Assembly (NCBI GenBank): GCA_021292105.1
Contig: CM037871.1
Coordinates: forward strand, 36,385,854 to 36,449,853
DNA length: 64,000 nucleotides
Source: Anadara kagoshimensis
Taxonomy: Eukaryota; Mollusca; Bivalvia; Arcoida; Arcidae
Reading direction: 5' to 3'
How positions within the stretch are numbered: the stretch's first letter is position 1; each line of letters begins with the position of its first letter. A model generated the notes under the pieces. That model saw only the letters and a program-made list of their open reading frames with translations. It ran no database searches and was not told the origin of the DNA. A program made the translations under genes and the position numbers. Positions 6,801 through 60,961 of this stretch are shown here, in pieces.

Positions 6801-8828
6801 TACATATTTTTTCTGGATTTTGCTTTTACGCCACAGCATAATGTGCCTCTCTTAGTTTTTGATTTAGTTGGAATCACAAGTATTTATTTTTTATTTTGCT
6901 GACATCAGTCTGTGTATAACTTTCAAATCAAGATTCCCACTTGCTAGTTTCCTTTTCAATTTAGGTTATTCATAACAGCTGCGTTTCACATGAGTTTTTA
7001 CTTTTATCAAATAGGTAAATATACACTTTGTATAATTTGTGTTTACAAACTTGTTATGTATTTTAGATAGTCCTGTTTCCCAGAATGGGCATATACCAAA
7101 TCACTATCAGAATGCAGTAAAGGTACAAATGACTCCAAATCAACTTACAGAAAATCACATCACAGAAGTTGACAGTACCAATGTTAACCAGGACAATAAA
7201 ACTACTGAAAATAATGCTCAAACAAAGTTACCAAATGGTGGTAGTAAAAAAAGTAATAGTACCAGGGAATCTGGACATGAGTCCAGTAATGATATTAATA
7301 AGGACCAGAATGTTGGGGAAGGTGTACAAGAATATGAACAAGGCACTGGTGAATTTATACCTGTGCTTGACAATAATGAAGAAAACGCGAAAACAGCAAA
7401 AAGTGATAATACTGAACAGAAATCTGATGGTTCTTTATCTAATAAACACAAAAAGTTGAAAAAGTCTGTTTCTGAAGGTAGTGGTTTTAACACTGATTCT
7501 GTGGTAGAGAACAAGTTACCGAGAACAAATAGTTCAAAGGATTTCCAAAGATCAAGTTCTGTTGATGTTGGACACGTGCACGATATAGTGGCACAAATTG
7601 AGTCGTATGGCAATGTAACAAAGTTACAAAGAAAACACAGTGATAAGGAACAGTTAATGAGTTAGTATATATGTTCTTCTTTCGCCTTCACACATTGGTA
7701 GATTTCTGTTTATTTTAGCTTTTTATTGTGGTTCAAACTACATGTACTGGTAGATAATTGTAAAAATTGAATTTCAACATGAATTTAGATTAATGGATAA
7801 AAGAATACATTAATCTCTATCACACATTGGTATATTTCTTTTTTGTTTTTTCCATTTTCTGTAATTTCTGTAAATTACATATAGACAGCAGTTGGTATAT
7901 TTCTGTAATATGCAAACTGCTTTTATAAAATATTTAAAATCAAATTTCAATTTATATTTCGAATGTTGACTGGAATAATACATTGTTCTTACAATTTTGA
8001 TTAACGATAAATTTGCTTACAATTTTCAAGAGTATTGTAAATTTTATTTTGATATCTAGATGATGATGAGAATGATTCAGCCCTCGGAGCAGATAACATG
8101 GGTCTGGATATTGACGAGCTAGACGAAGTCCAGCGTCGGAATTTACCGGTTATGGCTGAATATGAAGGAACACGGACATACAGGAGCGCGGTAAAACGTT
8201 TATAATATAATAAAAAATAATGAAAGTTGTTTAATAATTTAAGTACCCGTTCAAATGATTTAGCCATTCCATAAGCAACATCATGTTGACATTTAAATTA
8301 CTTGTCTATTGTCAGTATTTCAATGACACTAGAAGCCAACAAAATTCTTACTTTTCATGTAATATTCTAGTGGCCATAAATGAACTTATCTTCTCAATTT
8401 GATTGGGGATGTCAATATCTAGTCAGTCATTATGAGATTCAGTATTGCACAAACTACACTCCCAAAGCAGATATACTCCCCCTAGCACTGTAGTTTAAGT
8501 GGTATCGTAAATGATAAAATTAAATAATCCTGTTCATGTTCAAATCACAATTCCAAAAACAAACCAAACACTTTGAGAACTGGAGAAATATGTAAAACAG
8601 GTGAGCTTCTACCAGGAAAGTGAAACCGTGTGTTTTGAATAGGTAAACAGCTCCTGTTTAGCTAGCGACACCTGCCATGTGTGAAAATCAAAATTAAAAT
8701 GAAAGAAACCAAATGTGAGGTGTCATATCTAGGACAGATTATGATGCAGAGACATCATACTTAACAACAACATTATAATGACAATATATTTTTATTTTCA
8801 GGAGGGTATCCCACTTACTGATTTGTAA
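688..8828 (+). CDS. Voltage-sensor-domain / coiled-coil membrane protein, TMEM266-like (spliced, 5' end missing)
   Basis: Nine plus-strand exons join in phase: 688-815, 2975-3168, 3627-3680, 4226-4376, 5794-5909, 6466-6559, 7067-7660, 8060-8190 and 8802-8828 (stop TAA). Each internal edge has AG/GT signals and every leftover base completes a sensible codon. The product has four hydrophobic segments: one in exon 1, one at the end of exon 2 running into exon 3, and two in exon 4. The last holds arginines in an S4-like spacing (RVIRIPR). A charged coiled coil and a long polar tail follow. This order matches the TMEM266/HVRP1 and Hv1-type voltage-sensor families, and the coiled coil after S4 and the long tail favour TMEM266. 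The protein would sit in a membrane as a voltage sensor. The C-terminus TDL fits a class I PDZ ligand. No initiator exon was found, so the gene probably begins left of the window. Confidence 0.66.
836..1024. mobile_element. MITE, family CAGRCCTGTCGAAAGTTTAAC, copy 1
   Basis: Starts CAGACCTGTCCAAAGTTTAA and ends with the inverse 'gttaaactttcgacagttctg'. Two further copies (1157-1355, 51821-52021) have the same size of about 190-200 bp and the same ends. No clear target duplication. Non-coding. CAG ends and size would fit a hAT-type non-autonomous element, but this is inference. Confidence 0.6.
1157..1355. mobile_element. MITE, family CAGRCCTGTCGAAAGTTTAAC, copy 2
   Basis: Begins CAGGCCTGACGAAAGTTTAA and ends 'gttaaactcccgacaggtctg'. 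'ATAAAGTA' precedes it, as at the 51.8-kb copy, so the family consensus may extend outward. Further fragments with 'gttaaactttcgacagg' follow to about 1440. Confidence 0.6.
1590..1660 (-). repeat. SINE 3'-tail fragment
   Basis: Contains 'caagaatatttcacttat', the inverse of the tail shared by the full SINEs at 41.6 kb and 53.3 kb. The tRNA-like head is missing, so it is a truncated, minus-oriented copy. Confidence 0.5.
2786..2974 (+). repeat. Tandem duplication containing the exon-2 splice acceptor
   Basis: Two roughly 95-base units each contain 'acatattgtct', 'ttcattttaata' and end with 'ttgtaaatttcag' (ending at 2883 and 2974). Only the second acceptor keeps the TMEM266-like frame open; using the first would add 91 bases with an in-frame TAA. 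Confidence 0.7.
2975..4376 (+). CDS. TMEM266-like gene: exons 2-4, S2-S3-S4 of the voltage sensor
   Basis: Exons 2975-3168, 3627-3680 and 4226-4376. The first starts with a Ser/Thr/Asn-rich extracellular-type loop with an N-x-S and an N-x-T sequon and a C-x2-C pair. It then gives S2, which ends in GIFIIE and runs on into VLCRFV in the next exon. The third gives S3 (IIDGFVVLLLVTMEIL, aspartate near the start) and S4 with regularly spaced arginines. The intron between exons 3 and 4 has an open reading stretch with membrane-like composition that is not needed by the model. Confidence 0.62.
4740..5780. repeat. Dispersed repeat family B, two copies head to head
   Basis: About 4740-5075 (minus) and 5290-5780 (plus) are copies of one long repeat. 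Its hallmarks are 'tgcagcaatacctgctt', 'gcagggatattgcaagc', 'gagcacccggcctcacttcc' and 'agtttttattttgc'. Related pieces occur at 6.24-6.45, 8.52-8.78, 10.31-10.65, 10.94-11.09, 12.54-13.01, 13.27-13.45, 14.09-14.58 and 40.94-41.11 kb. No coding domain recognised. It fills most of the intron before the coiled-coil exons. Confidence 0.6.
5794..6559 (+). CDS. TMEM266-like gene: coiled-coil exons
   Basis: Exons 5794-5909 and 6466-6559. The leftover A of the S4 exon plus TG makes Met, then a strongly charged helix follows (KERYAEKMEL, then EQIENLKKQILRYEIEH). Heptad spacing of Leu/Ile in the second exon suggests a coiled coil directly after S4, as in Hv1 and TMEM266 where it drives dimerisation. 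Both donors are clean (gtaagt, gtaaac). Confidence 0.62.
7067..8828 (+). CDS. TMEM266-like gene: polar C-terminal tail and stop
   Basis: Exons 7067-7660, 8060-8190 and 8802-8828. The large exon encodes about 198 residues rich in Asn, Ser, Lys, Glu and Gln, low in hydrophobics and presumably disordered. The next exon is acidic (NDDENDSALGADNMGLDIDE). The last is only nine codons with stop: EGIPLTDL then TAA. The donor after 7660 is gttagt, a weaker but acceptable site. A polyadenylation signal follows at 8959. Confidence 0.62.
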
Positions 8829-16228: not shown

Positions 16229-47177
<30,949 letters not shown>

Positions 47178-52038: not shown

Positions 52039-52046
52039 CGATTACT
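52039..52046. repeat. Target site duplication, left copy
   Basis: CGATTACT directly before the left TIR; identical to 60954-60961. Eight bases is the duplication length of P-superfamily (and hAT) transposons. Confidence 0.93.
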
Positions 52047-52347
52047 CACAGGCATTTGTTTCTATGAATGAAAAAAAAATCGAGAAATTACTATATAATA
52101 ACACAAGGTGGTCATCTCTTTTTCAGGAGAATTACCACCAGTCCGCTTCAAACTGATTATTTCCATTTTTGCACGATAAAAATTCAAACAAACCTGGTAC
52201 CGTTCGATTCAAAACACTTTTATCTTTACGGTAATACACATTTTTGTATCCCTCGATAACCCCTCGCTTGAATAATTGACATATTTCTCAGCTATTCCAA
52301 CGACTACGACAAATATCACACTTCCACTATATTCACTTCCGGTCCGC
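52047..52347 (+). repeat. Left terminal inverted repeat (301 bp)
   Basis: Identical, as the reverse complement, to 60653-60953 including a 9-A run. At 52098-52113 it contains ATAACACAAGGTGGTC, strikingly like the ATAACATAAGGTGGTC part of the Drosophila P-element TIR (from memory). The 63-codon open frame inside it is present in both TIRs and is probably incidental. Confidence 0.95.
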
Positions 52348-52610
52348 AGTTAATATTATTTTGAGTAAATAAAATGAGTTGTTTAAAAAATATAAACGTA
52401 TAACAGTTTTAACATTTATATTTTTACACAAACAAAATAATACATATCTTAATTTAAAATCTGTGTTTTATTATTTTGACTATATTTATGTTCTCAACAT
52501 GTACGCCATGACAAGTCAAGAGGGTTTCCAAATAAGAACGATAACTCCCGATGAAATCAAATTGACATTTGGTGGGAAATTTAAAACGGACAATTTTGAT
52601 ACTTTTCAAA

Positions 52611-52648
52611 ATGAGTGAATGCAGAAATAATTTTGCAATTACTTTTTG
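52611..52648 (+). CDS. Putative first coding exon of the transposase
   Basis: An ATG with A at -3 opens MSECRNNFAITF plus two bases, then a textbook donor (gtaagtat) at 52649. The two leftover bases plus the first base of 54224 make TGG (Trp), so the phase fits exactly and the intron would be 52649-54223. A 39-codon upstream ORF (52499-52618) overlaps the start in another frame. The exon is short, so confidence rests on splice signals and phase only. Confidence 0.5.
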
Positions 52649-53089
52649 GTAAGTATAATGAGAGAACTCTCAATTTGTAATACAGCCAATTATATTGACG
52701 TTTTGGGGAAATATATAAAGGAGATAGTACCAAATGAGGCTTTCTATGGTACTAGTACCTAGTCAAATTTGTGTTTCTGTAAACATGGAGAATGCAGCAT
52801 AGAGTTAAAAAAAAAATGACGGTACCTACATTTGTACGGGGGGGGGGGGGATCAGATTTATGGACTGGCACAACATTTATGCAGTAAAAAAAAAAAAAAG
52901 ATTAAAAAAAAAATGTTCAAAGTTTATTATGTTCTATATGTTCATGAGAGTGCATATTTCTCACAGGCACTTGTTTCATGAATAAAAAAAATTATCGAGA
53001 AATTTTTGATTGTCAATATATATTTAGTTGATATGCAATTCTATGGCAGACCAAATGGGTTTTTATTCAAAAAATGGAGTTATCTACAT

Positions 53090-54020
53090 TTAAATACAGA
53101 TATCTTTATTTCAAATAAAGATATCTCTTTCAAATACAGATATCTACATTTTCCAAAAATTAATGCTTTAATACAGATATCTCTAATTCAAATATAGATT
53201 TCTGTATTTGAAATAGAGATATCTATATTTCATGTTTATGCATTGATTAAATAGGGTAAGGTGTTTTACGCCTACTCAAGAATATTTCACTTATACGAGG
53301 CGTCCAGTTTTCCATGGTGGAGGAAGACCCTGGTTTCACGAGGAGACGCCAGGTAGAACCACCGACCTGCGGTAAGGGAACTGAACAAACCCTTTCTCAG
53401 ATAAGGCCGCGCTGTGCGGATTCGAACCTGCGACCTCATTGCTGAGAGACCACATGATTGTTGGCGCCCTGCCTAACCACTCGGCCACTGCGGCCTAATT
53501 GATTAAATAAAGTCAAATGCAGATATCTGTACTTATGTAGCTAAACGTTTACGTCGTAACAATTTCATTTTAGTGGTCAAAGTTTCATATTCAGAATTCT
53601 GTGAAAAAAAATTTAGTGATCCCCAATTGAAATCAACAAATAACTAATTTTTTAATGGGTCTCTAAAATGGTGGTGAGGGAGCAGTTATTAACCGACATC
53701 AAATATGAAACTAAAGTTAATAATCAAATATAAAAAGTCCCATCACCTTCTAAATAAAGATATCTGTATTTGAAACAAAGATATCTTTTTTTGCATTTCA
53801 GTGTCACTAAATAGAGATAGCTGTATTTGAAATAATATATCTTCATTTGTAACACAGATATCTGTATTTGAAATTCAAATATATTTATTTAGGGTTAGAA
53901 TGTTCGTTTAATATAGATATCTATATTTGAAATAGATATATCTTTATTAAGTATATCAAATGTCGATATCTGTATTATGAATGTAGATATCTGTATTTGA
54001 AATGCAGATATCTCTATTTA
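53090..54020. repeat. Cluster of AAATA-AGATATCT-TATTT palindromes
   Basis: About fifteen imperfect copies of a roughly 20-bp palindrome centred on GATATC (AAATACAGATATCTGTATTT type) occur in under 1 kb, spaced about 20-25 bases in sub-clusters. A SINE interrupts the cluster. Palindromes of this type elsewhere in the element were not noticed. Many DNA transposons carry sub-terminal repeats that bind transposase; a role here is only a hypothesis. Confidence 0.75.
53254..53497 (-). mobile_element. tRNA-derived SINE inserted inside the transposon, 12-bp target duplication
   Basis: On the minus strand the head reads GGCCGCAGTGGCCGAGTGGT with a B-box GGTTCGAATCC. The body contains the inverse of 'catggtggaggaagaccc' and the tail AAGTGAAATATTCTTGAGTA. 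The duplication ATTGATTAAATA lies at 53242-53253 and 53498-53509. It shares its tail with the SINE at 41.6 kb. Confidence 0.9.
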
Positions 54021-54223
54021 TTGAATGAAAATCCATTTGGCTTACCATAAAATTCAGTAGCAATATTTACAAAAAAGAGAAATAAAATTTAAAATAAGTT
54101 AAAATATAAGATTTTGCTCAAGAATGAAATGGCTCAATTTAAATAAAAAAGAAACTTTTTCTTAAGAATGAAAATGGCTCCCTTTAAATACTTAATATAA
54201 GCAAAACATTGTTTACTTTGTAG

Positions 54224-56573
54224 GTTATCAGAGCATCTTGCATTTAATACTGGAAATACATCTCTTCATTTAATTTATGAACAATTGAAAGAAAACAGTA
54301 TAATCCAAAACAAGGATCATGAGCATATAAGTGTTAACCTTGTTGCACATTTAATATCTGTATTATTTAAAAATGTACAAAAATCAACAGTCCACTGTCA
54401 GACCACAGGGAAACTTTTACAAAGTTACAAAAATATTTCAATACTACCATCTGTATGTAACAAAGAGATTCCATTTGAAAGTGTGTACAAAATGTTACCT
54501 CCTAACTGGTTTATCTTTCATAAAGACTCCATCTCAGTTACATTTGGTCATTTATCTGAAGTTCGATTTAACGGACAACCATCAACACTTTATTTGAAAC
54601 TTACTGCTTGCAATTCAGTGTCTGTTGAAATGGATCATACCCCTATAGACTTAAAAGAATATTATATTCCAGACACTATCAGATATACCAACTCATCAAT
54701 ACCTGCCTTATTTCACTGTATGTCTATTTTACAACCATGCCAAGGCTATGAAATCCTTAAACAAGATGAACATTCTTTAAGTGACAGTTCTAAATGTATT
54801 AAAGTTCAAATGCAATCAGGCAACAACATAACATATATACTGAAACACAAAGACTGTATACGGTGTTTGAAACTGCAACTGAAGTCTTCTACCACCTGTA
54901 AAAAATGTACAGTATTTGTAAGAAATAGAAAAAAATTACAAAAAGTTGGTGAAAAGGAAAATAAAATACCCAAACCTCTTTCAAAAGATGAAATTTTAAT
55001 AAAACTTAAAATTTTAGCTCCTAATTTACATGACAACCAGCTGTCACTTATGCAATCACAAATAGTAGCATCAAATATTAACAATAAGAAAGGTATGCGC
55101 TGGGACAAAGAAATTATTTGTATGTCATTGAGTTTATACAACAGAAATCCTGCTGTTTACAGAGACCTAACATTAAATAAATGGCTTCTCTTACCATCTG
55201 AACAACTACTTAAAGTTTACAAACATGCTGTTCAACAGAAGCCTGGAATTGTACCAAATATGATGCAGTGGATGTACAATGAATCAATGAGACAAATTTC
55301 AATTCCTGAGGGTTATTATGGGGGTATTATACTGGATGAGATGGCAATCCAGGAGGATCTCCAGATTATACACACTGGTCAAAGTTCAGAATTATATGGG
55401 TTAACATTCACTGGAGGAGACCTTGGAAAAATGCAGGCATTAAATAATGGAGAAATAACTGACTGTCAATTAGCTAATCATGTTCAACAGTATGTTTTCA
55501 CTGGTCTTACTGGATTCAGGTGGCCTTTTGCAAATTTTCCTAACACTCAAGCCCCACCAGCTGAAATATTTATTACCACTTGGATGTGCATAGATGAATT
55601 GATTAAATGGGGGTTCAAACCCATATATTGCTGTATGGATGGGTCTGCCAACAACAGGGCTTTTTTAAAAATGCATTTTTCAAAATCTGATCCACTCTCA
55701 ATGAAGATGGTTGCTAAATATTATAAAAATCCCACCAAGAAAATAGTATTCATGATGGACCCATGTCATCTTATCAAAAAGATTAGAAACAGTGTATTAA
55801 GTAGTGGTTTCCTACAAAGTCACCAAAGACTGCTTACAGTGGATGGGCACTTTGTCATTTGGAAAATGTGGATTGATGCCTACCAGTGGGATCGCTCTAC
55901 AAACACTTTTCCAATCCATCATAAATTGAGTGATGAACACCTTTTCCCAACTAATGCTCAAAAAATGCGGAACAAATTAGCATTTCAGGTCCTTGATAAT
56001 GATATGCTGCATTTAATGAGATGTTACTCTTCAACCTTAAATGATACTTGTCAGGCTGAAATGATAGGAGTGCTAGAGTTTTTGAAATATACCAGTTTTT
56101 TTGTATCATTTTTTACTGACTCAAGGCCCATAAAAGACAGAAATGATCCAAGATTAAACAGCCTCACTGAGTCATATAATTGGTTTAAGTCTTGGGAAAA
56201 ACAGGAAATCAGTGACAATGAGCCCAACAAAAGATACAAGTCTTTGTTGACAATGGAAACAAGAGAAGACCTGGACTATATGTATTACGGATTTATTTCT
56301 CTTGTGGAAATATGTACAAATGAACTGAATATTGAACTGGTCCCCAGTAGAGTTAACAGTGACATAATCGAAAATGTTTTCTGTCAAGAAAGATCACTTT
56401 ATCATGGCGCCAATACTAATCCAAATTATAATGAATATAGAACTGGAATAAACAGTATAATATTGGGACAAACTACAACATCCAGAAAGTCAAATGCTGG
56501 AGGTGAAACTGCAAAACCATTTGCTATTGGACCACCATCAAAGAAATTTAAACATACCAGTAAGTATAAATAA
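54224..56573 (+). CDS. P-element-type transposase (main exon)
   Basis: From the acceptor at 54223 the exon is open for about 780 codons to TAA. Counting codon 1 at 54285 (a TTG, not a true start): a C-x2-C-x10-C-x2-C zinc-type motif at about 191-208, a helix-turn-helix-like segment RWDKEIICMSLSLYNRNPAV, then an RNase H-like core. The acidic residues fit the P/THAP9 family: D351 in IILDEMAIQEDL, D452 in YCCMDGSANNRAF, and E696 in SDIIENVFCQE, followed by HGANTNPN, a motif typical of the family's C-terminal end. The enzyme would cut and join element ends in the nucleus. No N-terminal THAP zinc finger is seen, so end recognition must use another domain. A gtaagt at 56560-56565 could splice off the last residues to a further exon. 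Confidence 0.88.
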
Positions 56574-57000
56574 ATAAATAATAAGTAAATAATAAATAAG
56601 TAGACAAAAAATAAAATAAAATAAAATAATTTTTTTTTCAAAAAGAAATAAAAATACATAAATTATTATGAATAAAGTTGTTAATAAATCAGAAATTACA
56701 GTTGTTAATAAATCAGAAATTAGATAACTTGATAAATCAAATAAATAAATTTCATTTATTATTGGACCACCATTAAAGGTCACTGTAAATTTAAACATAC
56801 CATTAAGTATAAATTAATAAATAAAAATAAATAATAAATATATAATAAAATAAAATAAAATAAATAATGAATAAATGCAATAAAATAAAATAAAATATCA
56901 AAATAAATAAACCTTTTTTTTCAAAAAAAAAATAGAAATACAGAAATTATTATGAATCAAGTTGTTAATAAATCAGAAATTAGATAATGAACAAATTTAA
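56526..57000. repeat. Partial tandem duplication of the transposase 3' end, AT-rich
   Basis: 'attggaccaccat' with 'tttaaacatacca' and 'taagtataaa' from the end of the transposase frame recurs at 56760-56812. Both are followed by runs of 'aataaa', and 'gttgttaataaatcagaaat' occurs three times. The second copy has indels. The many AATAAA hexamers could serve as polyadenylation signals for the transposase. Confidence 0.7.
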
Positions 57001-57459
57001 TTTATTTATACAAGAATAAAATAATTGCACTTTCTTTTTATTTTTTATAATTATATTACCATTTGAAATAAATAGTTATTCATTCATTATAATCTAAATG
57101 ATAATTTAATTAATAATTAATTCTTTGATTAATAATTAAACAATTGAATAAATAGATTAGTCAGTTCATGAATTAATTAATGAATTTGGTAATTATAAAT
57201 TATATGTATTAGGAAATTTTTAAACATTTAATATGCTTTGTAAGTCTTTTAAGGCTTGATATGAAAGCTTTGATGATATAGAGTATGTGTTATTTTATAT
57301 GTATGTGCTGTGTCACTATATTTGATTATGAATGCAATTAATGAATTAGGTAATGAGTGCATTAGTCAATTTTAAACATAATTAGAATAATAATAATATT
57401 TATATCTTAGATTTGTGTTTTAGACATGCACACATTTTTGTAAACCAGTATATATGTAC
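57001..57459. other. AT-rich spacer between convergent genes of the transposon
   Basis: No coding signal. It separates the 3' end of the transposase (plus) from the 3' end of the PHD gene (minus) and probably contains polyadenylation sites for both. Confidence 0.5.
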
Positions 57460-57990
57460 CTATTTCAAGCACTCGGGACAGAACCAGTCACTCTCTTCTA
57501 TTTCATTCCATTGAGTCTCTGATACTTGAATGCATTTTCTGTCATACCACCGGTCACAAAGGTCGCAAGCAATCCAATCTTCACCATCTTTATATACAGA
57601 ATTACATAACGGGCAAATAGTTTCAGTTTCATGTGTTTTCTTTGCAGATTTTTTCTTAGATGAATATTTTGATGACCTTTTTTTCCTCTTTTTCAGATTT
57701 GCATTAGGTGGTTGTGAAACACTAACAGATGCCACAGAAGGACCAGCAGATGCCACAGAAGGTCCGGCCTTTGGTGAATCTGAAGTAGATGGCGGAGGTA
57801 CTGGTATGGTATCAGGAATTGGATTTTCAGTTGTCAGATAATGAGGGAAATGCATACTGTCTGACTCGCGGATAACAAGACATAGTTTTTTTTTTAATGA
57901 ATCCTTTGCATCATTTTTAGAAAATTCAATTCCATATGCATTGACTAATTTTATCAAATCTGTCTTTGTAAAGTTTTTTAAAGATGACAT
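57460..57990 (-). CDS. SAP-like / PHD-finger protein encoded by the transposon
   Basis: 176 residues. Residues 1-40 (FTKTDLIKLVNAYGIEF, then KKKLCLVI) resemble a SAP/HeH DNA-binding helix pair. 50-100 is Pro/Ser-rich with a repeated GPSVAS, and 99-120 is a Lys/Arg/Ser nuclear-localisation-like run. 126-174 is a PHD finger: C126, C129, C142, C145, C153, C171 and C174, with Trp169 before the last pair. The usual ligand histidine is Asp150. PHD fingers read histone H3 tails; here it could guide the element to chromatin (inference). The start lies 41 bases after the helicase stop, in another frame, so the two may share a transcript. The chosen ATG is the first in the frame and starts the SAP-like helix. 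Confidence 0.8.
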   Translation of the reverse strand: MSSLKNFTKTDLIKLVNAYGIEFSKNDAKDSLKKKLCLVIRESDSMHFPHYLTTENPIPDTIPVPPPSTSDSPKAGPSVASAGPSVASVSVSQPPNANLKKRKKRSSKYSSKKKSAKKTHETETICPLCNSVYKDGEDWIACDLCDRWYDRKCIQVSETQWNEIEESDWFCPECLK

Positions 57991-58031
57991 TCCATGGTCA
58001 AATATGAAAGATTTTAACTTCAGATGTGTAC

Positions 58032-60557
58032 TTAGTTTGTTGGCAGACTTGTCATTACAGAAGCTTTGATGTTCAGTTCTGATGTAAGGGTAGACTTAAC
58101 ATCAACCCTTTTGCGTAATGCATCAGTTTTTATTTTACCAACTTTATGAATGAAATCTTTCCTAAACTGATTGTCAGCCACACGACAAAATCTCTGAATA
58201 ATGTCAGAATAAAGTTCTCGCAAACAATGATCTGCACTATCTTTATCAATAAACAAATATTTATCAGACTGTTCAAAAGACTGAAACAAAATTCTCCATT
58301 TGTTGAAAAGAGTTTCATTTTCTAGGAGGACAGAATGACAGTGATTTAAAAATTCCGTTCCATATAATTTAAAATTGCTTTCAGTTTGAACAGAAAGTCT
58401 CTCTTTTTCAATCGCTTGAACAAAAAGAAAAGCAGAATCAATGATGTTGGTTAATCCTTGGGAGAGATTTTGTTTACGCTGTGTTTCGAAAAGGGATTCC
58501 TTATATTCCGAATTATTTTCCAAATCTGCATAACTTGTTGTTAACGAGTCTAACATTTTAACTTTCAAAAAGGCTTTCCCAACTGAAATTCTACTTTTTT
58601 TATTGTACATGTTGTTTTTTGCATGTTTCATATGATGATATCTACATTTCGCAACACAACGTCCAAATATATATCTTAACTTACCCTTAACAGATTCAGA
58701 AATTTCTTTTCCTGTTGTATCTTTTGACACAGTTAAATGTTCTGACTGTTTTTCTATTACTAAAGACTTCACTTTATCAAAAATGTTACTACAGATTTCA
58801 TAATAGATATCTGAGGGCTCACCATCAGATATCAAGTGAACAAGAGCAGTGTATTCTGCAGATACAGAAAAGTTGTATAGTTCTGTACAGAATGCTGTCC
58901 ATATCTTTGAATCTGTTGACACTGTTTTAACATTTCCACATGTTGCTTGAAAAATATCACTGAATTTGTGAAAAAGTTTATTTGAAAAAGTTTCCACAGT
59001 ATTGATTCTGTTTTCAGTTAATGATTTAAAATAAGAACTTACCAGTTTTTCTCTTGGCGAAACTTTCTCTCCAGAAAAAATACTACAGATTTCATTCATG
59101 TTAATGACTTTATGAACCTGTTCCTCTGGATCAAGAACATCAGAATCACTACTCATCAAAAAATCAATTTCTTCAATTTCTGTGTCACTAAAATCAGATA
59201 ATTCCTCCCCCTCCTCAAAGATTGAAATTGCAGGATGTGCTTTCTCTTCAGTCTGACTGGGAACAAAGTCAATTTTGCAACAAGTTGTGTCTTGAAAAAA
59301 ATTCTTATGGCACTTTACACAGTCATCATAAAAGTCATATAAAATTTTCTCGTGTTTTATGACACAAGATGGATTAAAGCCCATTATACGTAGACCCTTT
59401 TTTTCTGTTGCCCGACCTATTGCCACGCCAAACTGACCAGCTGCAAATATGCAACTGGCATCAACTTCTAACCTACTTAATGTCAACCCCTGAGACTTAT
59501 GGATTGTAATGGCAAATGCCAAACACAGAGGCAATTGTCTACGTGTTGCTACAACTTTATTGTCAGTGGTACTGAAGACAGTAAATGTTTCCTTTCTCAA
59601 CTCTGTGTATAAAGTACTTTCAAAGTTTTTATTTTGGAAGTTTACACCAACAGTTTTATTAGTTTTGTCAATTTTCACCACAGTACCTCTTAACCCATTG
59701 ACAAGTTTGTCAGATAAATTTTTTAGCAGTAGAATAGAACAGCCAATCTTAAGGTGCAGTGTTTTAGGAACAGGCATTCTCTCAAGTTTGTTTGTATCAC
59801 CCTCGTCAACTGAATGAAACACATGGTCATCACCTTCAATTTCCATTAATTTACAAGCATTAAAAATAAAACAATCAAAATTCCGTGCACATAGATGGAT
59901 AGGTTCCTCGCCAGGTGGTAAAGGACGACTCAAGCGCTTAATTAAATTAAGAGTGTCATCAGGTAAATTTCCTCTCGACACATCATTCACAGCCTTAATA
60001 AAGTCTGGCTGATTTTGACGCATGACATCAGTTAATACAAATTTATGAATAAAATAGGTTTTAAAAATATCCGAGACAAAACAATATTCTCCTGGGTCAT
60101 CCTTTAGGATGTCAGGAACTGGGGCTAACTGAAAAAAATCACCAACCCCCAGTACCTGAATTCCCCCAAATATTTTCTCACTTTTTCTTGTTTTCCTGCA
60201 AATATATTCTAATTGTTCGAATAAGCGTTTTGACAACATAGAAATTTCATCAATGATTAAGCAGTCTGTTGTTAAAATATTGTTCTTATATATTAAAAAA
60301 TGTTCATTGTTAGAAATTTTGTCCAGTAAATTTTCGTTCGAATATCTACCATCGCCAATACCACACCACGAATGAACAGTTTGTCCCCCTATATTAAGGG
60401 ATGCTATCCCTGTAGTGGCTGTAAGCCTTACATTTATACACTTTTCTTTAAGTTTACGGGCAATTTCTTTACAAACAAAACTCTTTCCAGTGCCACTCTG
60501 GCCTAAAATTAACAAGGAATGGCCATTTACCGCCTTTTGAACAATATCGTCTTGCAT
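58032..60557 (-). CDS. PIF1-family DNA helicase encoded by the transposon
   Basis: 841 residues in one exon. Superfamily 1B motifs: Walker A GQSGTGKS (19-26), TATTGIAS (47-54), Walker B IIDEIS (101-106), GVGDFFQLAPV (137-147), MRQNQPDF, then LAFAITIHKSQGLTL (346-360) and VAIGRATEKKGLRI with the arginine finger at about R382. PIF1 enzymes unwind DNA 5' to 3' and remove G-quadruplexes and RNA-DNA hybrids. After the core there is a cysteine group (CVKCHKNFFQDTTCCK, about 413-428), an acidic stretch (about 446-480) and roughly 360 residues of helix-like sequence that I do not recognise. The ATG is 96 bases inside the right TIR; upstream the frame has no other ATG before a stop. Helitrons carry PIF1-like helicases, but no Rep/HUH domain is seen here. 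Confidence 0.93.
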   Translation of the reverse strand: MQDDIVQKAVNGHSLLILGQSGTGKSFVCKEIARKLKEKCINVRLTATTGIASLNIGGQTVHSWCGIGDGRYSNENLLDKISNNEHFLIYKNNILTTDCLIIDEISMLSKRLFEQLEYICRKTRKSEKIFGGIQVLGVGDFFQLAPVPDILKDDPGEYCFVSDIFKTYFIHKFVLTDVMRQNQPDFIKAVNDVSRGNLPDDTLNLIKRLSRPLPPGEEPIHLCARNFDCFIFNACKLMEIEGDDHVFHSVDEGDTNKLERMPVPKTLHLKIGCSILLLKNLSDKLVNGLRGTVVKIDKTNKTVGVNFQNKNFESTLYTELRKETFTVFSTTDNKVVATRRQLPLCLAFAITIHKSQGLTLSRLEVDASCIFAAGQFGVAIGRATEKKGLRIMGFNPSCVIKHEKILYDFYDDCVKCHKNFFQDTTCCKIDFVPSQTEEKAHPAISIFEEGEELSDFSDTEIEEIDFLMSSDSDVLDPEEQVHKVINMNEICSIFSGEKVSPREKLVSSYFKSLTENRINTVETFSNKLFHKFSDIFQATCGNVKTVSTDSKIWTAFCTELYNFSVSAEYTALVHLISDGEPSDIYYEICSNIFDKVKSLVIEKQSEHLTVSKDTTGKEISESVKGKLRYIFGRCVAKCRYHHMKHAKNNMYNKKSRISVGKAFLKVKMLDSLTTSYADLENNSEYKESLFETQRKQNLSQGLTNIIDSAFLFVQAIEKERLSVQTESNFKLYGTEFLNHCHSVLLENETLFNKWRILFQSFEQSDKYLFIDKDSADHCLRELYSDIIQRFCRVADNQFRKDFIHKVGKIKTDALRKRVDVKSTLTSELNIKASVMTSLPTN

Positions 60558-60652
60558 TCTTGTCGTTTTACCTGTTTTACAATTTCTACTTTCGATTTGT
60601 GATTCTATTTATTCACCGACCAATCAAATATGGTCATCATATTCCCTGCGCA

Positions 60653-60953
60653 GCGGACCGGAAGTGAATATAGTGGAAGTGTGATATTTGTCGTAGTCGT
60701 TGGAATAGCTGAGAAATATGTCAATTATTCAAGCGAGGGGTTATCGAGGGATACAAAAATGTGTATTACCGTAAAGATAAAAGTGTTTTGAATCGAACGG
60801 TACCAGGTTTGTTTGAATTTTTATCGTGCAAAAATGGAAATAATCAGTTTGAAGCGGACTGGTGGTAATTCTCCTGAAAAAGAGATGACCACCTTGTGTT
60901 ATTATATAGTAATTTCTCGATTTTTTTTTCATTCATAGAAACAAATGCCTGTG
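60653..60953 (-). repeat. Right terminal inverted repeat (301 bp)
   Basis: Exact inverse of 52047-52347. The helicase start lies 96 bases inward, so promoter activity of this TIR would drive the minus-strand genes just as the left TIR would drive the transposase. Confidence 0.95.
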
Positions 60954-60961
60954 CGATTACT
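60954..60961. repeat. Target site duplication, right copy
   Basis: CGATTACT, identical to the left copy at 52039-52046. Confidence 0.93.

What the first reader, a model, noticed from the sequence alone, without database searches (positions are those of the whole stretch)
52047..60953. A P-superfamily transposon that carries its own PIF1 helicase and a PHD/SAP protein
Seen: perfect 301-bp TIRs, exact 8-bp duplication, a P/THAP9-type transposase with D351, D452 and E696, an 841-residue PIF1 helicase and a 176-residue PHD protein, all intact. Known: classic P elements encode one protein; PIF1 is typical of Helitrons, not P elements. Inference: the helicase may process ends, replicate gaps or resolve structures during transposition, and the PHD protein may choose target chromatin. 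It could represent an undescribed lineage of large composite P elements.
Basis: partly seen in the sequence, partly recalled or inferred. Interest (0 to 1): 0.92.

Follow-up and report, generated by a model that had tools for sequence, protein, structure and literature searches.

The report
P transposon carrying a PIF1-PHD helicase
A recently active jumping gene of the Drosophila P-element kind, in what is probably a bivalve genome, carries its own DNA helicase fused to a chromatin-binding type of zinc finger, and the same pairing recurs in distant relatives, so it looks like a lasting partnership rather than an accident.

Summary
The window has an 8,907-bp element with perfect 301-bp TIRs and an exact 8-bp duplication. 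It encodes a P-superfamily transposase and, convergent with it, a PIF1 helicase. The "PHD protein" is the C-terminus of that helicase: relatives encode one protein of about 1,030 aa. Of 15 copies with a complete transposase frame, only the window copy has the one-base frame break between the two halves. No SAP domain was detected.

A chance nested insertion is excluded. In the same genome 31 of 41 scored transposase loci have a convergent PIF1-type helicase downstream, 30 of them within 2.5 kb. They reach down to 39-47% (transposase) and 34% (helicase) identity to the window. TIRs with exact 8-bp duplications were seen in two diverged families.

Best mechanism (inferred): the transposase cuts and pastes, and the PIF1 protein promotes copying of the element back into the excision gap. 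Drosophila PIF1 has been tied to P-element gap repair (a citing passage seen). Deletion derivatives with microhomology fit aborted gap repair. New variant of a known kind.

The parts
52039..52046 (.). left 8-bp target-site duplication CGATTACT
   Evidence: read in the sequence and by script
52047..52347 (+). left terminal inverted repeat, 301 bp
   Evidence: 100% complementary to the right arm; 40 further perfect copies in the genome
52611..52648 (+). possible first coding exon of the transposase (ATG to a GT donor), in phase with the main frame from 54225
   Evidence: reading of the sequence; no transcript evidence
54225..56573 (+). P-superfamily DDE transposase, main exon
   Evidence: open frame; profile hit to P transposase 6p5a; hhalign to a THAP/P transposase, 98%
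57460..57990 (-). C-terminal part of the helicase protein with the PHD finger, out of frame with the rest in this copy only
   Evidence: PHD match E 1.9e-8; joined to PIF1 in P0033 and not broken at this place in 14 of 15 copies
58032..60557 (-). PIF1-type helicase, N-terminal 841 residues
   Evidence: Pfam PIF1 E 4.1e-32 and Pif1_2B_dom; PDB PIF1 E 7e-68 for the fused protein
60653..60953 (-). right terminal inverted repeat, 301 bp
60954..60961 (.). right 8-bp target-site duplication CGATTACT

Best explanation
It is a two-gene DNA transposon of the P superfamily. One gene encodes the P-type DDE transposase. The other, convergent with it, encodes an accessory protein: a PIF1-type helicase fused to a C-terminal PHD finger. 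Shown: the anatomy, recent mobility of the unit, and long-term linkage of the two genes. Inferred: the transposase cuts the element out and inserts it elsewhere with an 8-bp duplication. The excision leaves a double-strand gap, and the PIF1-PHD protein promotes long processive strand-invasion synthesis from a sister or homologous copy, so that the whole 8.9-kb element is restored at the donor site. Cut-and-paste then raises copy number. When synthesis aborts and the ends are joined by microhomology, internal-deletion derivatives result. The PHD finger may hold the helicase at nucleosomes of active chromatin; this is the weakest step.
For: Unit: 6 elements with both ends placed are 8,906-8,910 bp; 14 other copies are 99.87-99.96% identical over 5,346 bp, with 0-1 substitutions; 7 of 7 independent insertions with both ends in hand have exact, different 8-bp duplications. 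Linkage: 31 of 41 transposase loci have a convergent helicase, 30 within 2.5 kb; a diverged family has both genes between TIRs with its own 8-bp duplication. Both proteins conserved: dN 0.25-0.74 with saturated dS against distant copies. Gap repair: 9 of 11 deletion junctions in 10 derivatives have 1-5 bp microhomology, mean 2.36 against 0.78 for random breakpoints, P about 5e-5. [quoted passage not shown] Pif1 is part of the minimal break-induced-replication replisome (abstract of PMC13237216).
Against: No functional data. Drosophila P elements without a helicase use host gap repair and also give deletion derivatives (recalled), so the junctions do not show that this helicase is needed. Ten of 41 transposase loci, 9 of them among the 19 diverged loci, have no helicase within 20 kb. 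Deletion derivatives that keep only the start of the helicase gene and little or no transposase are present at several sites with their own duplications, so at least in cis the helicase is dispensable. The zinc-binding His of the PHD finger is Asp or Asn in 11 of 13 fingers read. No structure could be predicted.
Confidence: 0.55

Rival explanations
1. The PIF1-PHD protein acts at the ends rather than in gap copying: it unwinds or resolves structures formed by the long TIRs, or helps the transposase during excision, synapsis or insertion.
For: TIRs are very long (301 bp; about 309 bp in family B) and could fold back; the helicase is kept together with the transposase.
Against: Nothing here ties the helicase to the ends; characterised P transposases work without an element-encoded helicase (recalled).
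Confidence: 0.2
2. The PIF1-PHD protein mainly works through chromatin: the PHD finger directs insertion or expression to active chromatin, or protects the element from silencing, and the helicase activity is secondary.
For: Nearest solved PHD fingers are ALFIN-like, TAF3 and BPTF, H3K4me3 readers as I recall.
Against: The conserved part includes the whole helicase domain; the PHD zinc His is replaced in 11 of 13 fingers read; the 7 duplications read show no evident common motif (by eye).
Confidence: 0.15
3. Chance composite: a P element into which a PIF1 gene, for example from a Helitron, was inserted once and which then spread as a young burst.
For: PIF1 helicases are known from Helitrons; the family-A copies are a young, nearly clonal burst.
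Against: The pair recurs in diverged families with the same convergent layout; no Rep domain among the Pfam matches; the helicase is far closer to PIF1 (E 7e-68) than to the Helitron protein Helraiser (E 7e-14).
Confidence: 0.02

Closest known systems
P element superfamily (Drosophila P, THAP9; PDB 6p5a/6pe2)
   Same: Homologous transposase with the D, D, E motifs aligned, 8-bp target duplications, internal-deletion derivatives.
   Different: A second gene (PIF1-PHD), no THAP domain found, 301-bp TIRs. That classic P elements encode one protein with a THAP domain and 31-bp TIRs is recalled.
Kolobok lineages with accessory enzymes (KolobokH with RecQ helicase; KolobokE, D, P with nucleases)
   Same: Cut-and-paste transposon that encodes a repair-type accessory enzyme; one rhodophyte element has RecQ on the complementary strand (PMC9587614, passages read).
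   Different: Another transposase superfamily and another helicase family (RecQ, not PIF1); no PHD mentioned (0 occurrences).
Helitron / Helentron (RepHel)
   Same: A PIF1-type helicase encoded by a transposon.
   Different: Here DDE transposase, TIRs and 8-bp duplications; the helicase is a separate gene and only distantly like Helraiser.
Galileo and other Foldback-like P-superfamily elements of Drosophila
   Same: P-superfamily elements with long TIRs (abstracts in the listing).
   Different: Internally repetitive TIRs; no accessory helicase that I recall (papers not read).

Membership tests
P superfamily | P-type RNase H-like DDE transposase | tested here: met
   6p5a/6pe2 E 6.8e-7; hhalign 98%, 445 columns to P0032; TNP-like_RNaseH_N in 30 of 30 members at E<=0.001; the window protein alone scores 23 bits, below the curated 24.6
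P superfamily | catalytic D, D, E | tested here: met
   D 30/30, D 30/30, E in 22 of 22 rows with a letter, 8 of 30 gapped
P superfamily | GTP-binding insertion domain | tested here: inconclusive
   TNP-like_GBD E 0.015, below cut-off, in the window protein; 4 of 30 members at E<=0.001
P superfamily | TIRs with 8-bp target duplications | tested here: met
   7 of 7 family-A insertions with both ends held and 1 of 1 family-B insertion
P superfamily | THAP DNA-binding domain (present in P and THAP9; whether it is required for membership is open) | tested here: not met
   no THAP match at E<=1 in the window protein, nor among the families found in 30 members at E<=0.001; a possible first exon was not included
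PIF1 helicases | PIF1 helicase core and 2B domain | tested here: met
   PIF1 E 4.1e-32, Pif1_2B_dom E 1.7e-8, above cut-offs; PDB PIF1 chains
PIF1 helicases | 5'-3' helicase activity | not testable with these tools
   needs a biochemical assay
Helitron | Rep nuclease, no TIRs, no target duplication | tested here: not met
   no Rep domain among Pfam matches; TIRs and 8-bp duplications present
PHD finger | C4-H-C3 zinc ligands | tested here: not met
   PHD family match E 1.9e-8, above cut-off, but Asp or Asn replaces His in 11 of the 13 fingers found among 16 proteins examined, window family included; His in 2
SAP domain | Pfam match | tested here: not met
   none at E<=1 or E<=0.05

The most novel reading that the evidence does not exclude
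A lineage of P transposons that carries its own gap-repair engine: a transposon-encoded PIF1 tied to chromatin by a PHD finger turns non-replicative cut-and-paste into effectively replicative transposition by driving strand-invasion copying at the donor site. Together with RecQ in Kolobok, this would mean that cut-and-paste transposons have recruited recombination helicases more than once.
Probability: 0.4. Interest if true: 0.88.

Novelty: new variant of a known kind. Interest (0 to 1): 0.76.

Why it matters
In Drosophila, P elements regain copies through host gap repair (recalled). An element that brings its own PIF1 would make that dependence visible in evolution and directly testable with one gene, and would be a natural case of a transposon steering break repair. 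It also extends the P superfamily to long two-gene elements, and may account for some of the genes named 'PIF1' in Mytilus genomes (several hits carry that name).

Tried and rejected
Nested-insertion and Helitron-fragment readings were rejected. A separate PHD protein was rejected. SAP was not found. Scans of viral contigs gave no confirmed relative of either protein. L061 and L062 (C14) are one insertion duplicated with its flanks (96.6% over 7.9 kb), and C1/C3 share the same left flank, so I count them as two family-B insertion events, not four; C13 (93% to L061) has only its helicase side fetched. The C5 array is one insertion repeated (six units listed, same duplication). The C6:24660315 transposase has no helicase in 5.4 kb downstream but a convergent one 13 kb downstream, so its state is open. 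The C16 locus is a palindromic duplication of a transposase without a helicase in the 9.9 kb fetched. P0026 matches it at 99.8%, and the contig length given for P0026 (7,361) equals that of helicase P0043, but I could not show that they are one contig, nor look for P0043's gene in the genome. The equal contig lengths for P0004/P0039 and P0024/P0052 are suggestive only. The left ends and TIRs of family C were not fetched. Structure prediction was never accepted, so no fold comparison was made. Junctions were read only in loci that cut out (30 of 40 scored matches); for C8:34246892 BLAST joined the pieces with an 11-base overlap where exact matching gave a 3-base filler, and I use the exact result.
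Full report
OBSERVATION. The element is real. Inverted repeats of 301 bp at 52047-52347 and 60653-60953 are 100% complementary, flanked by CGATTACT on both sides. Open frames: transposase 54225-56573 (+), PIF1 58032-60557 (-), PHD 57460-57990 (-).

CORRECTION. In the window the helicase and PHD frames are separate, but they are one gene. P0033, 100% identical to the window's 841-residue helicase over 99% of it, runs on for 1,032 residues through the PHD finger. Among 15 copies in the same genome with a complete transposase frame, the window copy alone carries the one-base difference that separates the two halves. Others have indels or stops elsewhere in the gene: two of the 15 have small deletions in the PHD part, and by matching, 7 of the 15 have an open frame of 1,049 codons; nine such frames are listed in all, and the window copy has 858. 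So 'all three intact' is wrong for this copy, and the family encodes two proteins, not three. Pfam finds a PHD finger but no SAP domain, at E<=1 in the 176-aa piece and at E<=0.05 in the fused protein. A short exon at 52611-52648 could join the transposase frame in phase; this is a reading of the sequence only.

A YOUNG MOBILE UNIT. The genome (1.115 Gb, 36 contigs, unnamed) has 40 perfect matches to the 301-bp TIR outside the window, which are all of the 40 scored out of 136 candidates. Six elements with both ends placed, the window's included, measure 8,906-8,910 bp. Fifteen loci have a transposase frame 100% identical to the window's, the window included. Over 5,346 bp the 14 others are 99.87-99.96% identical, with 0 or 1 substitutions and a few small indels. 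All 7 independent insertions whose two ends I held have exact 8-bp duplications, each different; five further paired elements were not tested because both ends were not cut out.

DELETION DERIVATIVES. Ten TIR-bearing loci examined are internal-deletion derivatives of the element. Their 11 junctions have overlaps of 1-5 bp in nine cases and 3-bp fillers in two. Mean microhomology is 2.36 bp against 0.78 for random breakpoint pairs in the element (20,000 draws, P about 5e-5). This is the pattern expected of aborted gap repair closed by end joining.

THE PAIR IS CONSERVED. Protein searches of the genome gave 64 transposase matches (58 of 120 candidates scored) and 61 helicase matches (54 of 312 candidates scored), so both lists are incomplete. 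Merged, these are 41 transposase and 48 helicase loci. Thirty-one of 41 transposase loci have a convergent helicase downstream within 20 kb, 30 of them within 2.5 kb and one at 13 kb. By my count from that table, 21 of 22 family-A loci and 10 of 19 diverged loci are paired. Some diverged loci are segmental duplicates of one another, so these counts are not independent events. The unpaired transposase loci are one family-A deletion derivative, the two halves of a palindromic C16 locus, and seven diverged pieces. Seventeen helicase loci are unpaired: 12 family-A pieces (97-100%) and 5 diverged ones. By plain arithmetic, 48 helicase loci in 1.1 Gb would put a convergent one within 2.5 kb of a given transposase in well under one case in a thousand.

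FAMILIES. Family B (C14, C1/C3, C13) is about 70-76% identical to the window in the coding stretches that align. Its C14 copy has both genes between TIRs of about 309 bp, 95.8% alike, with CTTTTCTG on both sides. The second C14 copy is a segmental duplicate, and C1/C3 share one left flank and lack the right end, so these are two insertion events. More distant pairs lie on C4, C17 (two) and C18: transposase 39-47%, helicase 34%. The C4 helicase has one open frame of 1,047 codons and includes a PHD-region match; C4 has no DNA match to the window and only 39 bp to family B. That C4, C17 and C18 form one family, and their TIRs, were not tested. Outside this genome, named proteins of Mytilus and Pinctada match both genes. 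Tegillarca, Saccostrea, Dreissena and Mercenaria were seen for the helicase only, and the hemichordate Ptychodera for the transposase only. Three transposase/helicase pairs have contigs of equal length (3,052,682; 7,361; 46,969,939), which suggests but does not prove linkage. Protein identities of the two genes rise and fall together (Pearson 0.86, Spearman 0.74, over 21 non-independent comparisons of seven pairs, three of them family B and three assumed pairs). Against distant copies both genes show dN of 0.25-0.74 while dS is saturated.

WHAT THE PROTEINS ARE. Transposase: the family profile finds a single solved sequence at E<=0.1, the P transposase 6p5a/6pe2 (E 6.8e-7, three colinear blocks, each weak on its own). 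hhalign to a THAP/P transposase gives 98% over 445 columns with the catalytic motifs aligned. All 30 members of the alignment match Pfam TNP-like_RNaseH_N at E<=0.001, though the window protein itself is just under Pfam's cut-off. No THAP domain was found. Helicase: the closest solved relatives are PIF1 helicases (E 7e-68), with Helraiser far behind (7e-14; 1e-108 and 4e-32 for the family profile). In a quick tree of 114 of 121 homologues, by helicase domain, it lies on the 34-row side of a split with 98% SH-aLRT, apart from insect and yeast PIF1; the root is a midpoint. PHD: the nearest solved fingers are ALFIN-like, TAF3 and BPTF, H3K4me3 readers as I recall. Its zinc His is Asp or Asn in 11 of 13 fingers read; 3 of 16 proteins did not fit my motif.

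MECHANISM. Shown: structure, recent mobility, conserved linkage, constraint on both genes, deletion junctions. Inferred: gap copying by the helicase. The main outside support is a passage in PMC8951532 (passages read). [quoted passage not shown] It cites Kocak et al. [quoted passage not shown] that paper is not held. The same paper reports that loss of BLM, HELQ or FANCM impairs gap repair (abstract). The abstract of PMC13237216 names Pif1 as part of the minimal BIR replisome. The deletions fit copies passing through gap repair, but ordinary P elements make them too (recalled), so they do not show that this helicase acts there. Small derivatives without a complete gene are also found at separate sites, so the helicase is not needed in cis. 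End processing and chromatin action remain rivals.

NOVELTY. Searches of the held open-access library (titles and abstract starts seen) listed no paper that describes a P element with PIF1 or PHD. Repbase, Dfam and most subscription journals were not searched. A pearl-oyster genome paper lists PIF1-like helicase among transposon-related domains (PMC9646362, passages read). The nearest precedent is Kolobok, with accessory RecQ (KolobokH) and nucleases (PMC9587614, passages read). I therefore call this a new variant of a known kind. That the host is a bivalve is inferred from the nearest relatives.

Noticed in passing
window 53240-53500: A tRNA-like, SINE-like stretch with a GGTTCGAATCC box (reverse strand) inside the element, within the possible transposase intron; the region is present in the other copies too. 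ARAGORN finds no tRNA in the window.
   Followed up: partly
window 53080-54025: Many copies of a GATATCTGTATTTGAAAT-like palindromic motif in both orientations inside the element.
   Followed up: no
G000 C5:48829286-48862624: Six units, about 6.29 kb apart, each with the same 1.9-kb deletion derivative and the same duplication CTAGTTAA: one insertion carried along in a tandem array.
   Followed up: partly
L063 (G000 C16:10114500-10124400): A nearly 10-kb palindrome with one intact and one broken copy of a distant transposase (P0026 family); it could be biological or an assembly fold-back.
   Followed up: partly
L061 and L062 (G000 C14, 1.85 Mb apart); C1 and C3 copies: Segmental duplications that carry family-B insertions with their flanks.
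   Followed up: partly
window 7036-7665, 30343-30804, 37731-38546: Open frames of 209, 153 and 271 codons (stop to stop) without any Pfam match at E<=0.01.
   Followed up: partly
C-terminal PHD finger of the helicase family: Asp or Asn at the zinc-binding His position in 11 of 13 fingers read, an unusual PHD variant.
   Followed up: partly
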